Source: a virus
DNA: 41,927 bases
IMG/VR virus record: IMGVR_UViG_3300042922_000851
Coordinates: 1-41,927 of that record
Reading direction: 5' to 3' (one strand)
The notes beneath the pieces are model-generated. The model ran no database searches. It was not told where the DNA came from and worked only from the letters and a program-made list of their open reading frames with translations. The position numbers and the translations under genes are program-made. Within the stretch, counting starts at the first letter, position 1; each line of letters begins with the position of its first letter. Shown here piece by piece: positions 30,886 to 39,476 of this stretch.

Positions 30886-32124
30886 TTAGATAAATACATT
30901 TGGAAACTCTATTAAGAATTGCTTCCAGTTAAGACATTTCATCAAATCAATTGTCCTTATCTTCAATGGTCTTTGTTTTCCATTTGCATCAATAAAATGG
31001 TAGTCATCTACCATCTTGTCATTCTTAACAAATGGGTATAACAATATAATTTCTTTAATAGAATCAATACTTGTCGAATATGCATTCATCTGATACAAAT
31101 CAGATTCTTTTGCAAACTTTTGAGGTATTTTCCATTTGGTATCAACAATTGTAAATTCTCCATGTGTTTGTTTAATGGCAATATCCGGTCGTAGCGCAAT
31201 ATGTTTCTTCAAATCAGCATCCCTCTGTAACAAATAATTACCCCGCATTTGATAAGAAACCTTGTTTCTGTAAACAATATGTGCGACCTTATATATAAAT
31301 AATTCGTATAAATTATTCATGTCAAAAAGCATCATGCTTATTGACACATTGCCTGCACTGAGTGTACTAAATACATTATTAAGAAAAAGTTTTCCATATG
31401 TATACGACTCTTCTGCACTTTGATTAGTAGAATTAAAAATAATATCTTTTGCCAAAGCTTTTTCTTTACTTATGTCTAAAAAGTCTTCATACATTGGAAA
31501 TAAATATTTAATACGCCTTTTATTCTGCGAATCAGTACTAACTTTATACATGTGTTTCAAACACAATTTAAAGAATTGATTTATACTATTATCCGCAGTA
31601 AACTTCGAATACCTGCACCAGAACTTTGTTGGTTTTAGTATGTTTTGGGAAAACTGCTTATTAAAAAGTATTCTTCCCTTAACTCGATTCAAATTATTAT
31701 CTTCTTTCTTATAAGAATGCCTTAGACCTTCTTTTGTATATTTTTCAAGTGATGTAAGAAAAGTATCAATCAGCATTTCAATTAAAGAATTTTTACTTAC
31801 TTGTGTCATACCAGGCATTTCTCTAACTGAAGGTTTCTGGTGCGAGATTAAAAGCATTCGTGTAAGAACACTCCTTAGGTCATCCATAGAGACATATCCA
31901 TAAAGCTTTGGCAGTATCTCAATATTCAGATCCTTCAAAGTAATGGTTCCAACCCAATGCTGTGCAGTAAGTTTTTTATATCCCCATTTAAACACAGGTT
32001 CTTCATTCATGATGACACTTTGAAGTGCAAGAGCATCATCTTTTGTAATTGTATTATTGTTTATATCTCTCTTTTCTCTTATATGCAATTGATCATATTC
32101 TTTTAAAATAATAGTTTCCATCAT
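30886..32124 (-). CDS. McrC-like nuclease subunit of a McrBC-related restriction system
   Basis: A 412-residue McrC-family protein. The N-terminal half binds the McrB ring (GYKKLTAQHWVGTITLKDLN, then LNIEILPKLYGYVSMDDLRS). The C-terminal PD-(D/E)xK nuclease is LRPDIAIKQTHGEFTIVDTKWKIP in pieces, with Asp and D-x-K. It cuts DNA when driven by the McrB motor. Overlaps mcrB by 4 bases. The presence of two methyltransferases in the operon argues for a LlaJI-type rather than a methyl-dependent system. Confidence 0.9.
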   Translation of the reverse strand: MMETIILKEYDQLHIREKRDINNNTITKDDALALQSVIMNEEPVFKWGYKKLTAQHWVGTITLKDLNIEILPKLYGYVSMDDLRSVLTRMLLISHQKPSVREMPGMTQVSKNSLIEMLIDTFLTSLEKYTKEGLRHSYKKEDNNLNRVKGRILFNKQFSQNILKPTKFWCRYSKFTADNSINQFFKLCLKHMYKVSTDSQNKRRIKYLFPMYEDFLDISKEKALAKDIIFNSTNQSAEESYTYGKLFLNNVFSTLSAGNVSISMMLFDMNNLYELFIYKVAHIVYRNKVSYQMRGNYLLQRDADLKKHIALRPDIAIKQTHGEFTIVDTKWKIPQKFAKESDLYQMNAYSTSIDSIKEIILLYPFVKNDKMVDDYHFIDANGKQRPLKIRTIDLMKCLNWKQFLIEFPNVFI

Positions 32125-33383
32125 TGATATATTTGCTTTAACGAATCTATCGTTATTTTTGTTGCTACGTGGTAATGTTTTTTATCATCAATCATATAGT
32201 CTCCGGTATATGAAAAGAAATTGTCAGCCACTATATCCTCATGCTGATATATTGCATTAACACGTAAGTCTCCAGTATCATCTAAATCATTAAACACTAA
32301 CTGTATTTTTTGAATATCATCATAAAAGTACTCTTCCAATAGAGGAATTACCGAGTTCCTTATGACTCCAGCAATTGCATCTGCTGTCGTCGCTCCAAGA
32401 AACAATGCGTGTCCTAACAAATGTTGTGAATCAAGTAAAAGTTCTATCCTTGAATTAAGAGTGTTAAATATTTGTATAAGGTCTACCCCATCAATATTAT
32501 GAGAATCAAGTCCTTGTAATTCCATTTCATTTTTTATAATTTCAGAATTTGGAAGTATTGGACTAAATTTAAACCTTCTTCGAAGTGCAATATCAATCTG
32601 ATCAATTGATCTGTCTGCTGTGTTCATTGTACCATAAACATTTACATTTGGTGGTACTGTAAATGTTGTTTTTGAATAAGGAAGAACAGCTGACAAAGCT
32701 CCAGATTCCCCAGCTCTCTTATCAACTTCTATTAAGCTAATTAATTCACCAAATATCTCGGAAATATTACCACGATTAATCTCATCAATAAAGATAGCAT
32801 AATCTTTTTCAGGGTGCTTTGAAGCTTCATCACACAAAAATTTAAAAATACCAGGTTTTGGTGAGTAATCGATTGATTTTGTGGCAGCTATATACTCCGG
32901 CCTAATTCCCTCAATAAAATCCTCATATGCGTATGACTGATGGAATGTCACAAAATTATATCTTTTTGTCACAGTTGACTTACTTAGAAATTTAGCAAAA
33001 AAATCTGCACGTGCTTGTTGAACTCTTACTAAATCAACATACCATTCACTAGGTCCTATCGAAATAAAAATTCTTGGTTGCACTCTTGTAACTGCTGCAA
33101 TTGGAGCAGGAGAAAGATTATGCTTATCCAATTCAGCTCCAACATTAATATTAATTCCTAATGAAAGCGAATCAACTTTCTTTTGAATTTCTGTTGTTGC
33201 CATTTTTCCATGATTTTGTAGTAAAATCAATGTTATAAGAATCCATTCTTTTGATTCACTAATAAAAGCGTTTTTTATCTGGGAATCATCAATATCATAA
33301 TCAATATAGTCATTCATCAATGATTGTATAAGATATGTCTTTCCAGTTCCTGGAGGACCATAAAAAATAACATTCTTTGCCAT
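32121..33383 (-). CDS. McrB-like AAA+ GTPase with inserted domain
   Basis: About 420 residues; ATG at 33383 (MAKNVIFYGPPGTGKTYL) preferred over TTG two codons upstream. Walker A GPPGTGKT at 9-16, the family motif FHQSYAYEDFIEGIRP near 147-162, Walker B IFIDEINRGN near 197, and GTMNTADRSIDQIDIALRRRF. The P-loop starts the protein, so the usual N-terminal DNA-binding domain is missing. About 80-100 residues are inserted between Walker A and the FHQSYAYED motif, containing a possible winged helix (EWILITLILLQNHGKMATTE). It would be the translocating motor for McrC. Confidence 0.9.
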   Translation of the reverse strand: MAKNVIFYGPPGTGKTYLIQSLMNDYIDYDIDDSQIKNAFISESKEWILITLILLQNHGKMATTEIQKKVDSLSLGININVGAELDKHNLSPAPIAAVTRVQPRIFISIGPSEWYVDLVRVQQARADFFAKFLSKSTVTKRYNFVTFHQSYAYEDFIEGIRPEYIAATKSIDYSPKPGIFKFLCDEASKHPEKDYAIFIDEINRGNISEIFGELISLIEVDKRAGESGALSAVLPYSKTTFTVPPNVNVYGTMNTADRSIDQIDIALRRRFKFSPILPNSEIIKNEMELQGLDSHNIDGVDLIQIFNTLNSRIELLLDSQHLLGHALFLGATTADAIAGVIRNSVIPLLEEYFYDDIQKIQLVFNDLDDTGDLRVNAIYQHEDIVADNFFSYTGDYMIDDKKHYHVATKITIDSLKQIYQ

Positions 33384-33390
33384 AATCAAA

Positions 33391-34143
33391 TTACCTCGTC
33401 AAGTATTTTAATCCTGGAAGGAAGCCACTTCCATTAACAACATTTGCAACACCAAACTTCGCATTATATACTTTTTTCATATTTTCAAATTTAGCCGGAG
33501 AAATGTAACCCACATTTTTCATATAATCCTCAACGTTTTTAATTCTCAATTGAGGTTTTCTTGGATCACCTCCCGCTAATCGATCCCTTGCTGTATTGTA
33601 ATTACAATCAAAACCAAAATCCTCAAAAATCTCATTCAGAAAATCCCCAATATCATCATTTGGACAATCTAATGACAAATATCTTATTATAGCATTCGGA
33701 ATACTTATATCGGGTGTGCCACGTCCATCAATAACACCCAAAATAAACGCTTTTTTCACATCTCTTGCTGATGCCAACAATACAGGCTTTAATGCTGGAA
33801 TTTCATTACGCAAATCTGTCAATCCTGTTGACTCAAAAAAAGTACTGAATCCAGGAAGACGATTTTTACCAGAATCTAAGGATGTCCCTTTGATATTATC
33901 TTTCATAACTGTATATCCATTAACCTTAGAACTGATATTACTAACATAATCAAAATGCTCTGCTGTTTGTGCTCCTGAAGAATATGTAGGGTTATATCTT
34001 ACTGGAGCAGCCCAATAGAGTTTACCACTACTACTGACTTTCTCATCAGCAGCATAAATTCCCCCTAAAAAGTATGCCGTCTCTGTTGTTAAGTACTTTG
34101 TGCCCGTGTTAATACCCGCATTGTAAATTTGATAACTTACCAA
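33391..34143 (-). CDS. LAGLIDADG-like protein, putative recognition subunit of the RM system
   Basis: A 250-residue protein with two LAGLIDADG-like motifs about 107 residues apart: YFLGGIYAADE (24-34) and FILGVIDGRGTPD (133-145). The second is followed by the family's usual SLDCPNDDIGDFLNEIFED helix region. The second motif has Arg where the metal-binding Asp should be, so nuclease activity is doubtful. Its place between the methyltransferases and mcrB suggests DNA recognition for the McrB-C complex, which otherwise has no DNA-binding domain. TTG start with AAGGAAGG. A free homing endonuclease is the alternative. Confidence 0.65.
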   Translation of the reverse strand: MVSYQIYNAGINTGTKYLTTETAYFLGGIYAADEKVSSSGKLYWAAPVRYNPTYSSGAQTAEHFDYVSNISSKVNGYTVMKDNIKGTSLDSGKNRLPGFSTFFESTGLTDLRNEIPALKPVLLASARDVKKAFILGVIDGRGTPDISIPNAIIRYLSLDCPNDDIGDFLNEIFEDFGFDCNYNTARDRLAGGDPRKPQLRIKNVEDYMKNVGYISPAKFENMKKVYNAKFGVANVVNGSGFLPGLKYLTR

Positions 34144-34223
34144 TATGTTCCTTCCTTTCTATACCATCAACAGGCAGAGTCTAATCTCTGCCATAGTATG
34201 GTAATTCCTTAGTTAATAATAAG

Positions 34224-35288
34224 TTACTTATTCATATCTTTAATAATAGCTTCTGCTAAAGCCTTTGAAAGTAATGGTGGAACTGCATTACCGACTTGTT
34301 TCATCTGTGATGTCTTTGTTCCATAGAACCTAAATGTATCTGGAAACGACTGAATTCTCGCAGCTTCTCGAACTGTAATGGCTCTATTCAAATAAGGATG
34401 TGTAAATTTTCCCGATGAAGGAGTGTCAAATCTAGTCGTAATAGTTACTGATATATCATCAGCATCCATCCTCTCCCATGTTCCACTATAAATAGATTTC
34501 GTTAAATGCTCAGGTGGAAGATATTCTTTTCCACCTTTTGGTGGTATCATAGCTAATCTTTCCAGTGCAATTTTGGAGTGATTAGTTGCAATATGATTAT
34601 AAATCTTTTCACTCCCTGTTCTCATCATTTTTTGATATTCTGAATCCACAGATTTTATATACTCTGCTACCTCCGTTCCTTCTCCTGATTTCAAATATGC
34701 TAAATCACTTATAGCATCCCATATAGTTGTTCTCTTGCTGACCCTATTTGGCATTTCAACCGGTTTATCTGTATTCTTTTTTCCTATAATAAAGGCTCTG
34801 TGTCTATTTTGTGGGACTCCATAATCTGCAGCACATAACACTTGTGCATTTATTGTGTATCCAAGTTCTGTAAACATTATTGTTAATTCATTCTTAAAAA
34901 ATCCATTTTCAGCTGTTAATAAATTTGGTACATTTTCCATTATAAAATATTGTGGGGATACTTCCTTAACCACATCAATAAAATATCTAAACAGAAAATT
35001 TCTAGAATCATTTATCGTTTTTCTCTGTCCTTTTTGCGAATATCCTTGACATGGTGGTCCCCCAACACATAAATCAACTATTCCTTTATATTTTCCAAAT
35101 GTCTCATGAATTGGAAGTTCTGTAATATCCGCAACAATCATATTGGGATTATTGCGATTTTTGATATACGCTTGAGCTATTGACTTATCATATTCATTTG
35201 CTATAACCACCTCAAATCCCATCTGTTCAAATCCAAGAGAAAGGCCACCTACACCTGCAAATAGATCAATCATCTTATATGTGTTCAA
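34224..35288 (-). CDS. DNA cytosine-5 methyltransferase of the RM system
   Basis: A 354-residue C5 methyltransferase. Motif I is MIDLFAGVGGLSLGFE, the catalytic loop GGPPCQGYSQKGQR has Cys80, and later motifs are MENVPNLL, PQNRHRAFIIG and the C-terminal VGNAVPPLLSKALAE. It protects host DNA from the McrBC-like enzyme. TTG at 35288 is supported by AGGTG; a downstream ATG lacks a ribosome-binding site. It overlaps the preceding gene by 14 bases. It is unrelated in detail to the prophage C5 enzyme. Confidence 0.93.
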   Translation of the reverse strand: MNTYKMIDLFAGVGGLSLGFEQMGFEVVIANEYDKSIAQAYIKNRNNPNMIVADITELPIHETFGKYKGIVDLCVGGPPCQGYSQKGQRKTINDSRNFLFRYFIDVVKEVSPQYFIMENVPNLLTAENGFFKNELTIMFTELGYTINAQVLCAADYGVPQNRHRAFIIGKKNTDKPVEMPNRVSKRTTIWDAISDLAYLKSGEGTEVAEYIKSVDSEYQKMMRTGSEKIYNHIATNHSKIALERLAMIPPKGGKEYLPPEHLTKSIYSGTWERMDADDISVTITTRFDTPSSGKFTHPYLNRAITVREAARIQSFPDTFRFYGTKTSQMKQVGNAVPPLLSKALAEAIIKDMNK

Positions 35289-36015
35289 CTTTATTCACCT
35301 GTTCTATCCTATCTTTTGTAATTCGGCAGTACTCTTCATTTATTTCCACCCCTATGAATCTTCTTCCATGTAATAGTGCTGCGACACCCGAACTTCCACT
35401 TCCACAAAATGGGTCAAAGACCACATCATTTTCATTTGTTAATAAACTAACAAATTTCTCTAATAGCTGAACTGGTTTCTGTGTTGGATGCTTTCCATAT
35501 TTCTTTTCGCTAGATGGTGTTACAGAGGTTTCAAAAAAATCATGAATAGCTTTTCCATCATTATTAAATGTTCCAGTGTGTTTTTTATATGTAAAGTAAA
35601 TCCAGGCTTCTGTCGAGTTAATAAAATGTAAATTCATATTACGTGGCATAGGATTTTTTTTATGCCAAATCCCAGTTGTTTTATAATAGAAATTGTGTTT
35701 TTCTGCCAATCTAATAATTGTTTCAACCTTTATAATCGACATAAACATTATTACAGAACCACTTTCTTTAATTATTCTAGCTAATTCAGCAAAAAGCAGA
35801 TCCATATCTTTTTCCCATTCATTAAAGTCAAGGTCATCCCACCCGGCTGCTCCGAAGAAGTTTTCTCTCATTGCTTTTAAATTCGTTGCTCTATTTTGCA
35901 TAAACAAACCCAAGTTATATGGTGGATCAGTCAAAACCAAATCTATGGATTTATCCTCCATCTCTTTCATTGCTTCCATACAACTTTTGTTATGTAATAT
36001 ATAATTGTCGTTCAT
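35275..36015 (-). CDS. Amino-DNA-methyltransferase (N4-cytosine or N6-adenine), beta class
   Basis: A 246-residue methyltransferase with motif IV first (SIDLVLTDPPYNLGLF, Asp30) and motif I last (VFDPFCGSGSSGVAALLHG), the beta-class order. A PTQKPVQLLEKFVSLL segment precedes motif I. DPPY suggests N6-adenine, but N4-cytosine cannot be excluded. Together with the C5 enzyme it would protect each strand of an asymmetric site, as in LlaJI-like systems that need two methyltransferases. Start follows CTGGAGGAAAGT. Confidence 0.9.
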   Translation of the reverse strand: MNDNYILHNKSCMEAMKEMEDKSIDLVLTDPPYNLGLFMQNRATNLKAMRENFFGAAGWDDLDFNEWEKDMDLLFAELARIIKESGSVIMFMSIIKVETIIRLAEKHNFYYKTTGIWHKKNPMPRNMNLHFINSTEAWIYFTYKKHTGTFNNDGKAIHDFFETSVTPSSEKKYGKHPTQKPVQLLEKFVSLLTNENDVVFDPFCGSGSSGVAALLHGRRFIGVEINEEYCRITKDRIEQVNKVEHI

Positions 36016-36048
36016 ACTTTCCTCCAGTATAATATAAATGCCGAATAA

Positions 36049-36243
36049 TTACTCCTTTGCACTTTTCCCACTTTTTACCCACTCATCTAACTCCGAGCGT
36101 TTAAATTTCCATAACTTACCTATTTTTCTAGCAGGCAAATCTATATCTTTTTTTATCCAATTTCTTAATGTGACTACCTTAATGCCAAGATATTCTGCAG
36201 CTTCATCTATTCCAATATAATTATCATATTTTGCTTCAGTCAT
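36049..36243 (-). CDS. Excisionase/MerR-type helix-turn-helix protein, RM operon regulator
   Basis: A 64-residue protein: YIGIDEAAEYLGIKVVTLRN and WIKKDIDLPARKIGKLWKFKR form a winged helix typical of excisionase-type DNA-binding proteins (helix_turn_helix_17). It is the first gene of the RM operon, directly behind the promoter, and would act as a controller of methyltransferase and restriction expression. The alternative is an excisionase of a mobile element; no partner integrase is present. Confidence 0.8.
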   Translation of the reverse strand: MTEAKYDNYIGIDEAAEYLGIKVVTLRNWIKKDIDLPARKIGKLWKFKRSELDEWVKSGKSAKE

Positions 36244-36286
36244 TTTAGTGCCTCACATACTTTCGCAGTCTCTTAGTTTCTTCTTT

Positions 36287-36315
36287 AGTATACTTAACAA
36301 GCGTTTACAAATCAA
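36287..36315 (-). promoter_or_regulatory. Promoter of the RM operon
   Basis: Minus strand TTGATT (36315-36310), 17-base spacer, TATACT (36292-36287), about 44 bases before the HTH start. The promoter lies inside an AACAAG…CTTGTT inverted repeat that may be an operator for the HTH protein. Confidence 0.65.
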
Positions 36316-37571: not shown

Positions 37572-39476
37572 ATGACTGAAAATGAGATAAAGCAAGAAAG
37601 CATTGCTATACAAAAATCAAAAATCCGGGAACGATATAAAGGCATAAATTCAGATGAACTAGATATTATTCCCGCTTTGCCACAAGAAGATTTTTATGAT
37701 AATCAAAGGGAAAAGCGTGTTGCTGTCTATGCCAGAGTATCAACCGATGATCCAAGACAAACATCGTCATATGAATTACAGAAATACCATTATCATGATG
37801 TTGTCAGCCGCCGTCCAGACTGGAAACTCATTGAAATATATGCCGATGAAGGCATTTCCGGCACCTCTCTCCAGCACAGGGATGCATTTGTAAAAATGAT
37901 TACTGACTGTAAGGCAGGGAAGATAGACTTAATTGTTACAAAGAGCGTTTCACGTTTTGCCCGAAATGTTGTTGACTGTATCGGATATGTTAGACAGCTC
38001 GCTGCTTTACAACCACCGGTCGGAGTATTTTTTGAAACCGAGAATATTTACACCTTGAACAGTACGAGCGAAATGAGTTTATCTTTCATTTCTACATTAG
38101 CCCAGGAAGAAAGCCATAATAAAAGTGAAATTATGAATGCTTCAATCGAAATGCGTTTCAGAAGAGGTATTTTTCTCACACCGCCACTTCTTGGCTATGA
38201 CCAGGATAATGATGGTAATCTTATCATAAATGAGGAGGAAGCTAAAATTGTACGATTGACATTTTTTATGTACCTATACGGCTACACTTGCCAGCAGATT
38301 GCCGACACGCTTACCAACCTTGGATGTCGTACTAAAAAGGATAATACAACCTGGTCGGTAAATTCTATTTTGCAAATTCTTCAGAATGAAAGGCACTGTG
38401 GAGATGTTCTTGCTCGGAAAACCTGGACCCCAAGTTACCTTGACCATAAATCAAAGAAGAACAAACAGGACAGAAACCAGTATCGTCAGCGTAATCATCA
38501 TGAGCCAATTATCTCAAGAGACGATTTCATTGCTGTTCAACACCTAATCAGCAACGCAAAATACGGAAATAAAGGACTCCTTCCGGAACTTCATGTCATT
38601 ACCGACGGTGTTTTAAAAGGATTTGTTCCTATCAATCCAAGATGGGCAGGATTCAAATCAAAAGATTATAAAGCAGCATCAGAAAGTGTTACTGAAGATG
38701 TCAACTCAATATCATCCTCCTGTATAACAGCTCAATCTGGAGATTTTGATCTTCGTGGTTTTGAAATAGCGCGAGCACAGTTTTTCGATACCGCTGATCG
38801 AATCAGTATGACATTTTCTATTAATGGAATCAAATTCAGTACAGAGGCTATTCGTAAGTTAAATGATATTGTCGGTATTGAAATGCTGGTGCATCCAACC
38901 AAACTCCTATTTGCTGTACGTCCTTGTACAAACGAAAACAGAAATTCCGTACAATGGGCCAGTCCTCAAAATGGTCGGATTAAGCCTCGCCTTGTCAGTG
39001 GTACTGCCTATTTATCCACTTTATATGATATATTCGGATGGAATCCAACCTGCAAATACCGCGTAATAGGAGTTCTTAAAAAAAATGAAAATACATCACT
39101 TATAATATTTAATTTACACGAAACGGAGATCTTAATTCCAAGTGATGTTCTTGATTCAGCCGATAAAAAAGAAAAAGAATCAAAAAAGCCATTGGAAGAT
39201 ATACTTCCATTTACTGAAGGTGCAAAGAAGAATGTCCTTGCTTATCCGGCAGATTGGGTAAATGGATTTGGTAACAACTATTATAGCCATTCGCAGGCTC
39301 GTGAACTTGCCGCTTTTTCAAATAATAAAGAATGGGGTGTTCACCTGGATGGAGTTCCATATAAAGAATCCGAACTGCAGATAACCGATTCAGATGATAT
39401 TTGTAAAAGCATCGACGAATTAATGAATGATATGAAACAGGAGGTTAACCATGAACGAAACAACCATGTTGAATGA
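37572..39476 (+). CDS. Large serine recombinase with an extra C-terminal domain
   Basis: A 634-residue serine recombinase. The catalytic domain is RVAVYARVSTDDPRQTSSYE (nucleophile Ser57), then DEGISGTSLQHRDAF and TKSVSRFARNVVD. The recombinase domain is MRFRRGIFLTPPLLGYD, then NSILQILQNERHCGDVLARK. Instead of the usual zinc ribbon and coiled coil, residues about 380-520 form a beta-rich domain (FEIARAQFFDTADRISMTFS…) also present in the next two genes. It should integrate and excise the element. Overlaps the next gene by 26 bases. Start has GGGAAGG. Confidence 0.9.
   Translation: MTENEIKQESIAIQKSKIRERYKGINSDELDIIPALPQEDFYDNQREKRVAVYARVSTDDPRQTSSYELQKYHYHDVVSRRPDWKLIEIYADEGISGTSLQHRDAFVKMITDCKAGKIDLIVTKSVSRFARNVVDCIGYVRQLAALQPPVGVFFETENIYTLNSTSEMSLSFISTLAQEESHNKSEIMNASIEMRFRRGIFLTPPLLGYDQDNDGNLIINEEEAKIVRLTFFMYLYGYTCQQIADTLTNLGCRTKKDNTTWSVNSILQILQNERHCGDVLARKTWTPSYLDHKSKKNKQDRNQYRQRNHHEPIISRDDFIAVQHLISNAKYGNKGLLPELHVITDGVLKGFVPINPRWAGFKSKDYKAASESVTEDVNSISSSCITAQSGDFDLRGFEIARAQFFDTADRISMTFSINGIKFSTEAIRKLNDIVGIEMLVHPTKLLFAVRPCTNENRNSVQWASPQNGRIKPRLVSGTAYLSTLYDIFGWNPTCKYRVIGVLKKNENTSLIIFNLHETEILIPSDVLDSADKKEKESKKPLEDILPFTEGAKKNVLAYPADWVNGFGNNYYSHSQARELAAFSNNKEWGVHLDGVPYKESELQITDSDDICKSIDELMNDMKQEVNHERNNHVE

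What the first reader, a model, noticed from the sequence alone, without database searches (positions are those of the whole stretch)
30886..36315. Six-gene McrBC-related restriction-modification system with a LAGLIDADG-like subunit
HTH controller, beta-class methyltransferase, C5 methyltransferase, LAGLIDADG-like protein, McrB and McrC form one operon from one promoter. LlaJI and BsuMI combine McrB/McrC-like restriction with two methyltransferases, but I know of none with a LAGLIDADG-like specificity component. McrB here lacks its own DNA-binding domain, so the extra protein may supply sequence recognition.
Basis: partly seen in the sequence, partly recalled or inferred. Interest (0 to 1): 0.8.

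Follow-up and report, generated by a model that had tools for sequence, protein, structure and literature searches.

The report
McrBC restriction-modification operon with LAGLIDADG subunit
A prophage of a gut-type bacterium carries a DNA-cutting defence operon in which a homing-enzyme-like protein, apparently no longer able to cut, probably tells the cutting motor which DNA sequence to attack, and relatives of this protein are found attached to quite different cutters in other bacteria.

Summary
The operon encodes HTH, a beta-class m6A-type methyltransferase, a C5 methyltransferase, an unassigned 250-aa protein, McrB and McrC. The unassigned protein has no Pfam, NCBIfam or PADLOC assignment. 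Its AlphaFold model (pLDDT only 57, pTM 0.65) matches LAGLIDADG proteins in the PDB (I-DmoI E 8e-4, PI-SceI, WhiA). Three Lachnospiraceae genomes carry the same five-gene core in the same order, two of them with the HTH; LAGL dN/dS is 0.06-0.09. More distant relatives, all in R-M loci, sit between a methyltransferase and a short McrB (with LlaJI) or are fused to an HNH nuclease beside the same kind of methyltransferase pair. The second catalytic acid is Arg in all seven sequences, so it is probably not a nuclease. Phages and plasmids with the same methyltransferase pair carry McrB with an unrelated fused N-terminal domain, which this McrB lacks. Best reading: a catalytically dead LAGLIDADG fold serves as target-recognition subunit of a LlaJI/BsuMI-like Type II system. 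The split layout is precedented (LlaI, BsuMI); a LAGLIDADG recognition module was not found in the literature held. Recognition is inferred, not shown; a ~100-aa McrB insertion remains a rival.

The parts
36049..36243 (-). HTH_17/excisionase-type small regulator (64 aa)
   Evidence: Pfam HTH_17 E 1.3e-15; present in L006, L007 and L016, absent in L008
35275..36015 (-). M1: beta-class DNA methyltransferase, DPPY motif, probably m6A
   Evidence: PF01555 E 7.8e-42; best solved relatives 5hek and 5hfj, M1.HpyAVI, E 1e-34
34224..35288 (-). M2: C5-cytosine DNA methyltransferase
   Evidence: PF00145 E 5.2e-80; PCQ and ENV motifs
34144..34203 (-). Stem-loop between modification and restriction genes, no T-run
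   Evidence: z -3.3; 7-bp stem in four loci, all cells paired, 2 compensatory pairs
33391..34143 (-). LAGLIDADG-fold subunit (250 aa, TTG start), proposed target-recognition subunit; D33 at motif 1, R141 at the motif 2 catalytic position
   Evidence: AF2 pLDDT 57, pTM 0.65; Foldseek I-DmoI, PI-SceI, WhiA; DGR invariant in 7 relatives
32121..33389 (-). McrB GTPase/AAA motor without N-terminal domain; ~100-aa insertion between Walker A and FHQSY
   Evidence: PRK11331 McrB E 5e-43; solved McrB 6ut3 and 6hz4; alignments
30886..32124 (-). McrC nuclease subunit, PD...DTK motif intact
   Evidence: PF10117 E 5.9e-58; 6ut5 chain G; motif in four loci

Best explanation
This is a prophage-borne Type II R-M system of the LlaJI/BsuMI kind. 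M1 (m6A) and M2 (m5C) methylate the two strands of one asymmetric site. The restriction complex is split in three: the LAGLIDADG-fold protein binds the unmethylated site, McrB (no N-domain) assembles on it as a GTP-driven ring, and McrC cuts. The LAGLIDADG protein does not cut itself. Shown: gene content, conserved order, fold, substitution of the catalytic acid, purifying selection, McrB without N-domain, module exchange in relatives. Inferred: DNA binding, contact with McrB, the site, restriction activity.
For: LAGLIDADG fold. Same M1-M2-LAGL-McrB-McrC order in three Lachnospiraceae genomes. All seven LAGL genes lie in methyltransferase R-M loci: the four above, L016 (C5 - PD-(D/E)XK-like ORF - M1-like - LAGL - short McrB - LlaJI), and L015 and L074, where the LAGL domain is fused to an HNH nuclease beside M1-M2-McrB-LlaJI. 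Phages phiD12, NatCom_11393 and IMGVR 15666929 with the same methyltransferases (M1 61-65%, M2 63-68% identical to this clade) have McrB with a fused ~290-aa N-domain that is not LAGL (hhalign 0.1%, control 97-99.5%). In LlaJI the McrB-like subunit R1 alone sets specificity, and its N-half was proposed to do so (PMC1459862). dN/dS of LAGL 0.06-0.09. The hairpin puts LAGL with the restriction half.
Against: No binding or restriction data. Low model confidence (pLDDT 57). McrB keeps a ~100-aa GTPase-domain insertion, and a census suspects such inserts of carrying specificity (PMC11090510); but NTD-bearing relatives L001 and L002 have sequence there too. LAGLIDADG proteins normally read long sites (general knowledge), whereas methyltransferases of this type mark short ones. 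L015 and L074 keep a fused McrB N-domain next to the LAGL-HNH protein, so the two readers can coexist.
Confidence: 0.65

Rival explanations
1. The LAGLIDADG protein is needed for restriction but as adaptor or loader; the site is read by the McrB GTPase insertion or by McrC.
For: ~100-aa insertion between Walker A and FHQSY, longer than the spacing in E. coli McrB (from memory); a census finds specificity-like inserts in McrB GTPase domains (PMC11090510).
Against: Sequence is also present there in McrB proteins that have their own N-domains; the LAGL domain also occurs fused to an HNH nuclease, where reading DNA is its natural task.
Confidence: 0.15
2. The LAGLIDADG protein is itself a nuclease or nickase that cuts at the methyltransferase site, working beside McrBC.
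For: D33 at the end of motif 1 is kept in the four McrBC-type loci.
Against: The motif 2 acid position is Arg in all seven relatives and the motif 1 acid is lost in L074 and L016; relatives carry an added HNH domain.
Confidence: 0.08
3. A transcriptional regulator of the restriction genes, like WhiA, which has a LAGLIDADG domain without nuclease activity.
For: WhiA is among the fold matches; R-M operons often need delayed restriction; a hairpin lies just upstream.
Against: No HTH domain found; an HTH gene already heads most operons; HNH fusions do not fit.
Confidence: 0.07
4. A selfish homing endonuclease gene that happens to sit in the operon.
For: LAGLIDADG fold; such genes are common in phages (general knowledge).
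Against: Fixed position in four loci and in L016 with other partners, 1-nt spacing to mcrB, catalytic Arg, purifying selection equal to McrB.
Confidence: 0.03

Closest known systems
LlaJI (Lactococcus pNP40) and its relatives with PF09563 nuclease
   Same: Two methyltransferases for an asymmetric site followed by a McrB-like and a McrC-like restriction subunit in one operon (PMC1459862)
   Different: LlaJI has two C5 methyltransferases and an R1 with a fused N-terminal specificity half; here m6A-type plus m5C, no McrB N-domain, a separate LAGLIDADG protein and PF10117 McrC instead of PF09563
LlaI and BsuMI (three-ORF restriction cassettes)
   Same: Short McrB (337 and 343 aa) plus an extra ORF: the split layout is already known (PMC1459862)
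   Different: LlaI.1, read on pUCCL629C (L066), has no match to the LAGL profile. The BsuMI extra protein could not be read here
E. coli McrBC (Type IV)
   Same: McrB GTPase and McrC nuclease are homologous
   Different: Two cognate methyltransferases in the operon; no modified-cytosine-reading N-domain; extra subunit
LAGLIDADG homing endonucleases (I-DmoI, PI-SceI) and WhiA
   Same: Fold: two alpha-beta-beta-alpha-type halves with LAGLIDADG-like helices
   Different: Second catalytic acid is Arg; not inside an intron or intein; fixed operon position; like WhiA probably DNA binding without cutting

Membership tests
Type II R-M of the LlaJI/BsuMI (McrBC-like) kind | Cognate methyltransferases in the operon | tested here: met
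   PF01555 and PF00145 with motifs, conserved in four loci
Type II R-M of the LlaJI/BsuMI (McrBC-like) kind | McrB-like GTPase plus PD-(D/E)XK partner | tested here: met
   Walker A, DEINRGN, MNTADRS and PD...DTK invariant
Type II R-M of the LlaJI/BsuMI (McrBC-like) kind | Nuclease subunit of family PF09563 (RE_LlaJI) | tested here: not met
   McrC matches PF10117, not PF09563, so it works like LlaJI/BsuMI but its nuclease is of the McrC family; the distant LAGL loci L015, L016 and L074 do have the LlaJI type
Type II R-M of the LlaJI/BsuMI (McrBC-like) kind | Cleavage only of unmethylated cognate sites | not testable with these tools
   Needs restriction assays
McrBC Type IV | N-terminal domain reading modified cytosine | tested here: not met
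   McrB starts at the P-loop; relatives L001 and L002 have N-terminal extensions
McrBC Type IV | No cognate methyltransferase | tested here: not met
   Two methyltransferases in the operon in four loci
LAGLIDADG homing endonuclease | LAGLIDADG fold | tested here: met
   Foldseek top 22 matches are all LAGLIDADG proteins; E 8e-4, probability 1.0; modest TM 0.4-0.5
LAGLIDADG homing endonuclease | Acidic residue at the end of both LAGLIDADG helices | tested here: not met
   D33 and R141; Arg in all seven
LAGLIDADG homing endonuclease | Mobile: intron, intein or variable insertion site | tested here: not met
   Same slot in all operons

The most novel reading that the evidence does not exclude
The LAGLIDADG fold has been taken over as a portable, cutting-dead target-recognition module of restriction systems: free-standing for GTP-driven McrBC and LlaJI motors that lost their own N-domain, and fused to an HNH nuclease as a stand-alone restriction enzyme.
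Probability: 0.6. Interest if true: 0.72.

Novelty: new variant of a known kind. Interest (0 to 1): 0.62.

Why it matters
Type II restriction enzymes are sorted by PD-(D/E)XK, HNH, GIY-YIG, phospholipase D and half-pipe sites (PMC4081073); LAGLIDADG is not mentioned in that review (0 occurrences), nor in a census of McrBC systems. If right, this links homing endonucleases to restriction, shows that McrBC motors can take their target from a detachable subunit, and offers a natural case of a meganuclease fold reading what should be a short, methylatable site. It makes testable how the target is handed to the McrB ring.

Tried and rejected
No relatives of the LAGL protein in plasmids, phages or IMG/VR contigs. 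The matches in G055 (L014), G1043 (L075) and G394 (L078) are chance: surface protein, Na/Pi cotransporter-like protein, response regulator. The idea that the fused McrB N-domain of phiD12-type systems is a divergent LAGL was tested and rejected, as were LlaI.1 and the small ORFs of L054, L056 and L060. AF2 of McrB failed (pLDDT 37), so the insertion could not be folded. Profile searches of PDB sequences found no LAGLIDADG protein by sequence alone. A weak LAGL hit in the L016 HNH protein (E 0.0017 in a small set) is suggestive only. BsuMI itself could not be read (no locus returned for the B. subtilis control genome).

Full report
What is there. The window is a prophage record: terminase, portal, major head protein, helicase and DNA polymerase, with distant DNA matches to Lachnospiraceae and Streptococcus phages. 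The operon lies between the phage region and a tRNA-Ser, with a serine recombinase beyond it (37572-39476).

Is the fourth protein really LAGLIDADG? A structure predicted from four sequences (pLDDT 57, pTM 0.65) has two similar halves with the LAGLIDADG order of helices and strands. Foldseek against the PDB gives I-DmoI first (E 8e-4, probability 1.0) and then PI-SceI, other inteins and the WhiA LAGLIDADG domain; unrelated folds begin only at E around 1. Relatives give sub-threshold Pfam hits to Hom_end (E 8e-4 to 2e-3) and LAGLIDADG_3. The model is of low confidence, so the fold is well supported but its details are not.

Is it chance or a passenger? A scan of about 85,000 species genomes with the protein alone gave three relatives at about 70% identity. 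All three have M1-M2-LAGL-McrB-McrC in the same order; the HTH gene is missing in L008. dN/dS of LAGL is 0.06-0.09, like the other genes. In 397 family and 392 order genomes, profile searches gave three further true loci. L016 has HTH, C5 methyltransferase, a PD-(D/E)XK-like ORF, an M1-like methyltransferase, LAGL, a short McrB and LlaJI. L015 and L074 each have a LAGL domain fused to an HNH nuclease, divergent from M1, M2, McrB and LlaJI. A sample of 398 genomes across the phylum had none beyond the known one. So the family is rare, and all seven known members lie in R-M loci.

What does it do? The second LAGLIDADG motif reads DGR where an acid is needed; Arg is invariant in all seven, and the first acid is not kept in L074 and L016. 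Cutting by LAGL is therefore unlikely, and in L015 and L074 an HNH domain supplies it. McrB here begins at its P-loop, while relatives carry N-terminal extensions. Phages phiD12, NatCom_11393 and IMGVR 15666929 and an Acinetobacter plasmid carry the same methyltransferase pair (M1 53-65% identical) but a McrB with a fused N-domain and LlaJI. That N-domain (phiD12 type) is unrelated to LAGL by profile comparison. In LlaJI the McrB-like subunit is the sole specificity subunit (PMC1459862). The simplest reading is that LAGL stands in for the missing N-domain. M1 is closest, among solved structures, to M1.HpyAVI, an m6A enzyme of a two-methyltransferase system (PMC5173035), which fits an asymmetric site with m6A on one strand and m5C on the other; the site itself is unknown.

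Regulation. A stem-loop without a T-run sits between M2 and LAGL in all four close operons; the sequence differs, the 7-bp stem is kept in all cells, with two compensatory pairs (only four sequences, 28 of 500 shuffles as good). It divides modification from restriction genes and places LAGL with restriction. The claim of one promoter is not shown.

What is known. Short McrB plus an extra ORF is already known for LlaI and BsuMI. LlaI.1, read on pUCCL629C, is not LAGL by profile. Association of McrBC with methyltransferases was noted in a census (PMC11090510), which also suspects GTPase-domain insertions of carrying specificity; the window McrB has such an insertion, so the rival that it reads the site remains open. 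No paper in the held library links LAGLIDADG with McrBC or Type II recognition; papers outside that library were not seen.

Verdict. Real, conserved, and a new variant of a known kind of R-M system, with a recognition module of a fold not reported for restriction in the papers held. Function is inferred.

Noticed in passing
L015:7367-8686 and L074:7579-8805: LAGL-HNH fusion proteins, divergent from a Phd-like small gene and an M1-M2-McrB-LlaJI operon; possible stand-alone restriction enzymes.
   Followed up: partly
L016:5287-6624: HNH protein directly after LlaJI with a weak LAGL-domain hit; a further such fusion may lie in the same operon.
   Followed up: partly
L054:5830-6519, L056:9206-9826, L060:2952-3800: Other unassigned small ORFs (206-282 aa) directly before McrB in LlaJI operons; possibly further kinds of separate recognition subunits.
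   Followed up: partly
L006:10275-12185; L066:7420-8661: By eye, a similar protease-like protein (HECVHW motif) follows McrC in L006 and the LlaI genes in L066; a recurrent companion of these R-M systems.
   Followed up: no
window:29491-30531: ComEC/Rec2-like metallo-beta-lactamase protein with a signal-like N-terminus, convergent with the R-M operon.
   Followed up: no
window:12526-15445: The phage part carries its own C5 methyltransferase (589 aa, with a long insertion against the family) and a ParB-domain N6/N4 methyltransferase, overlapping by about 90 bases.
   Followed up: partly
window:36524-36613: tRNA-Ser (gct) between the R-M operon and the serine recombinase; possibly part of the attachment region.
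   Followed up: no
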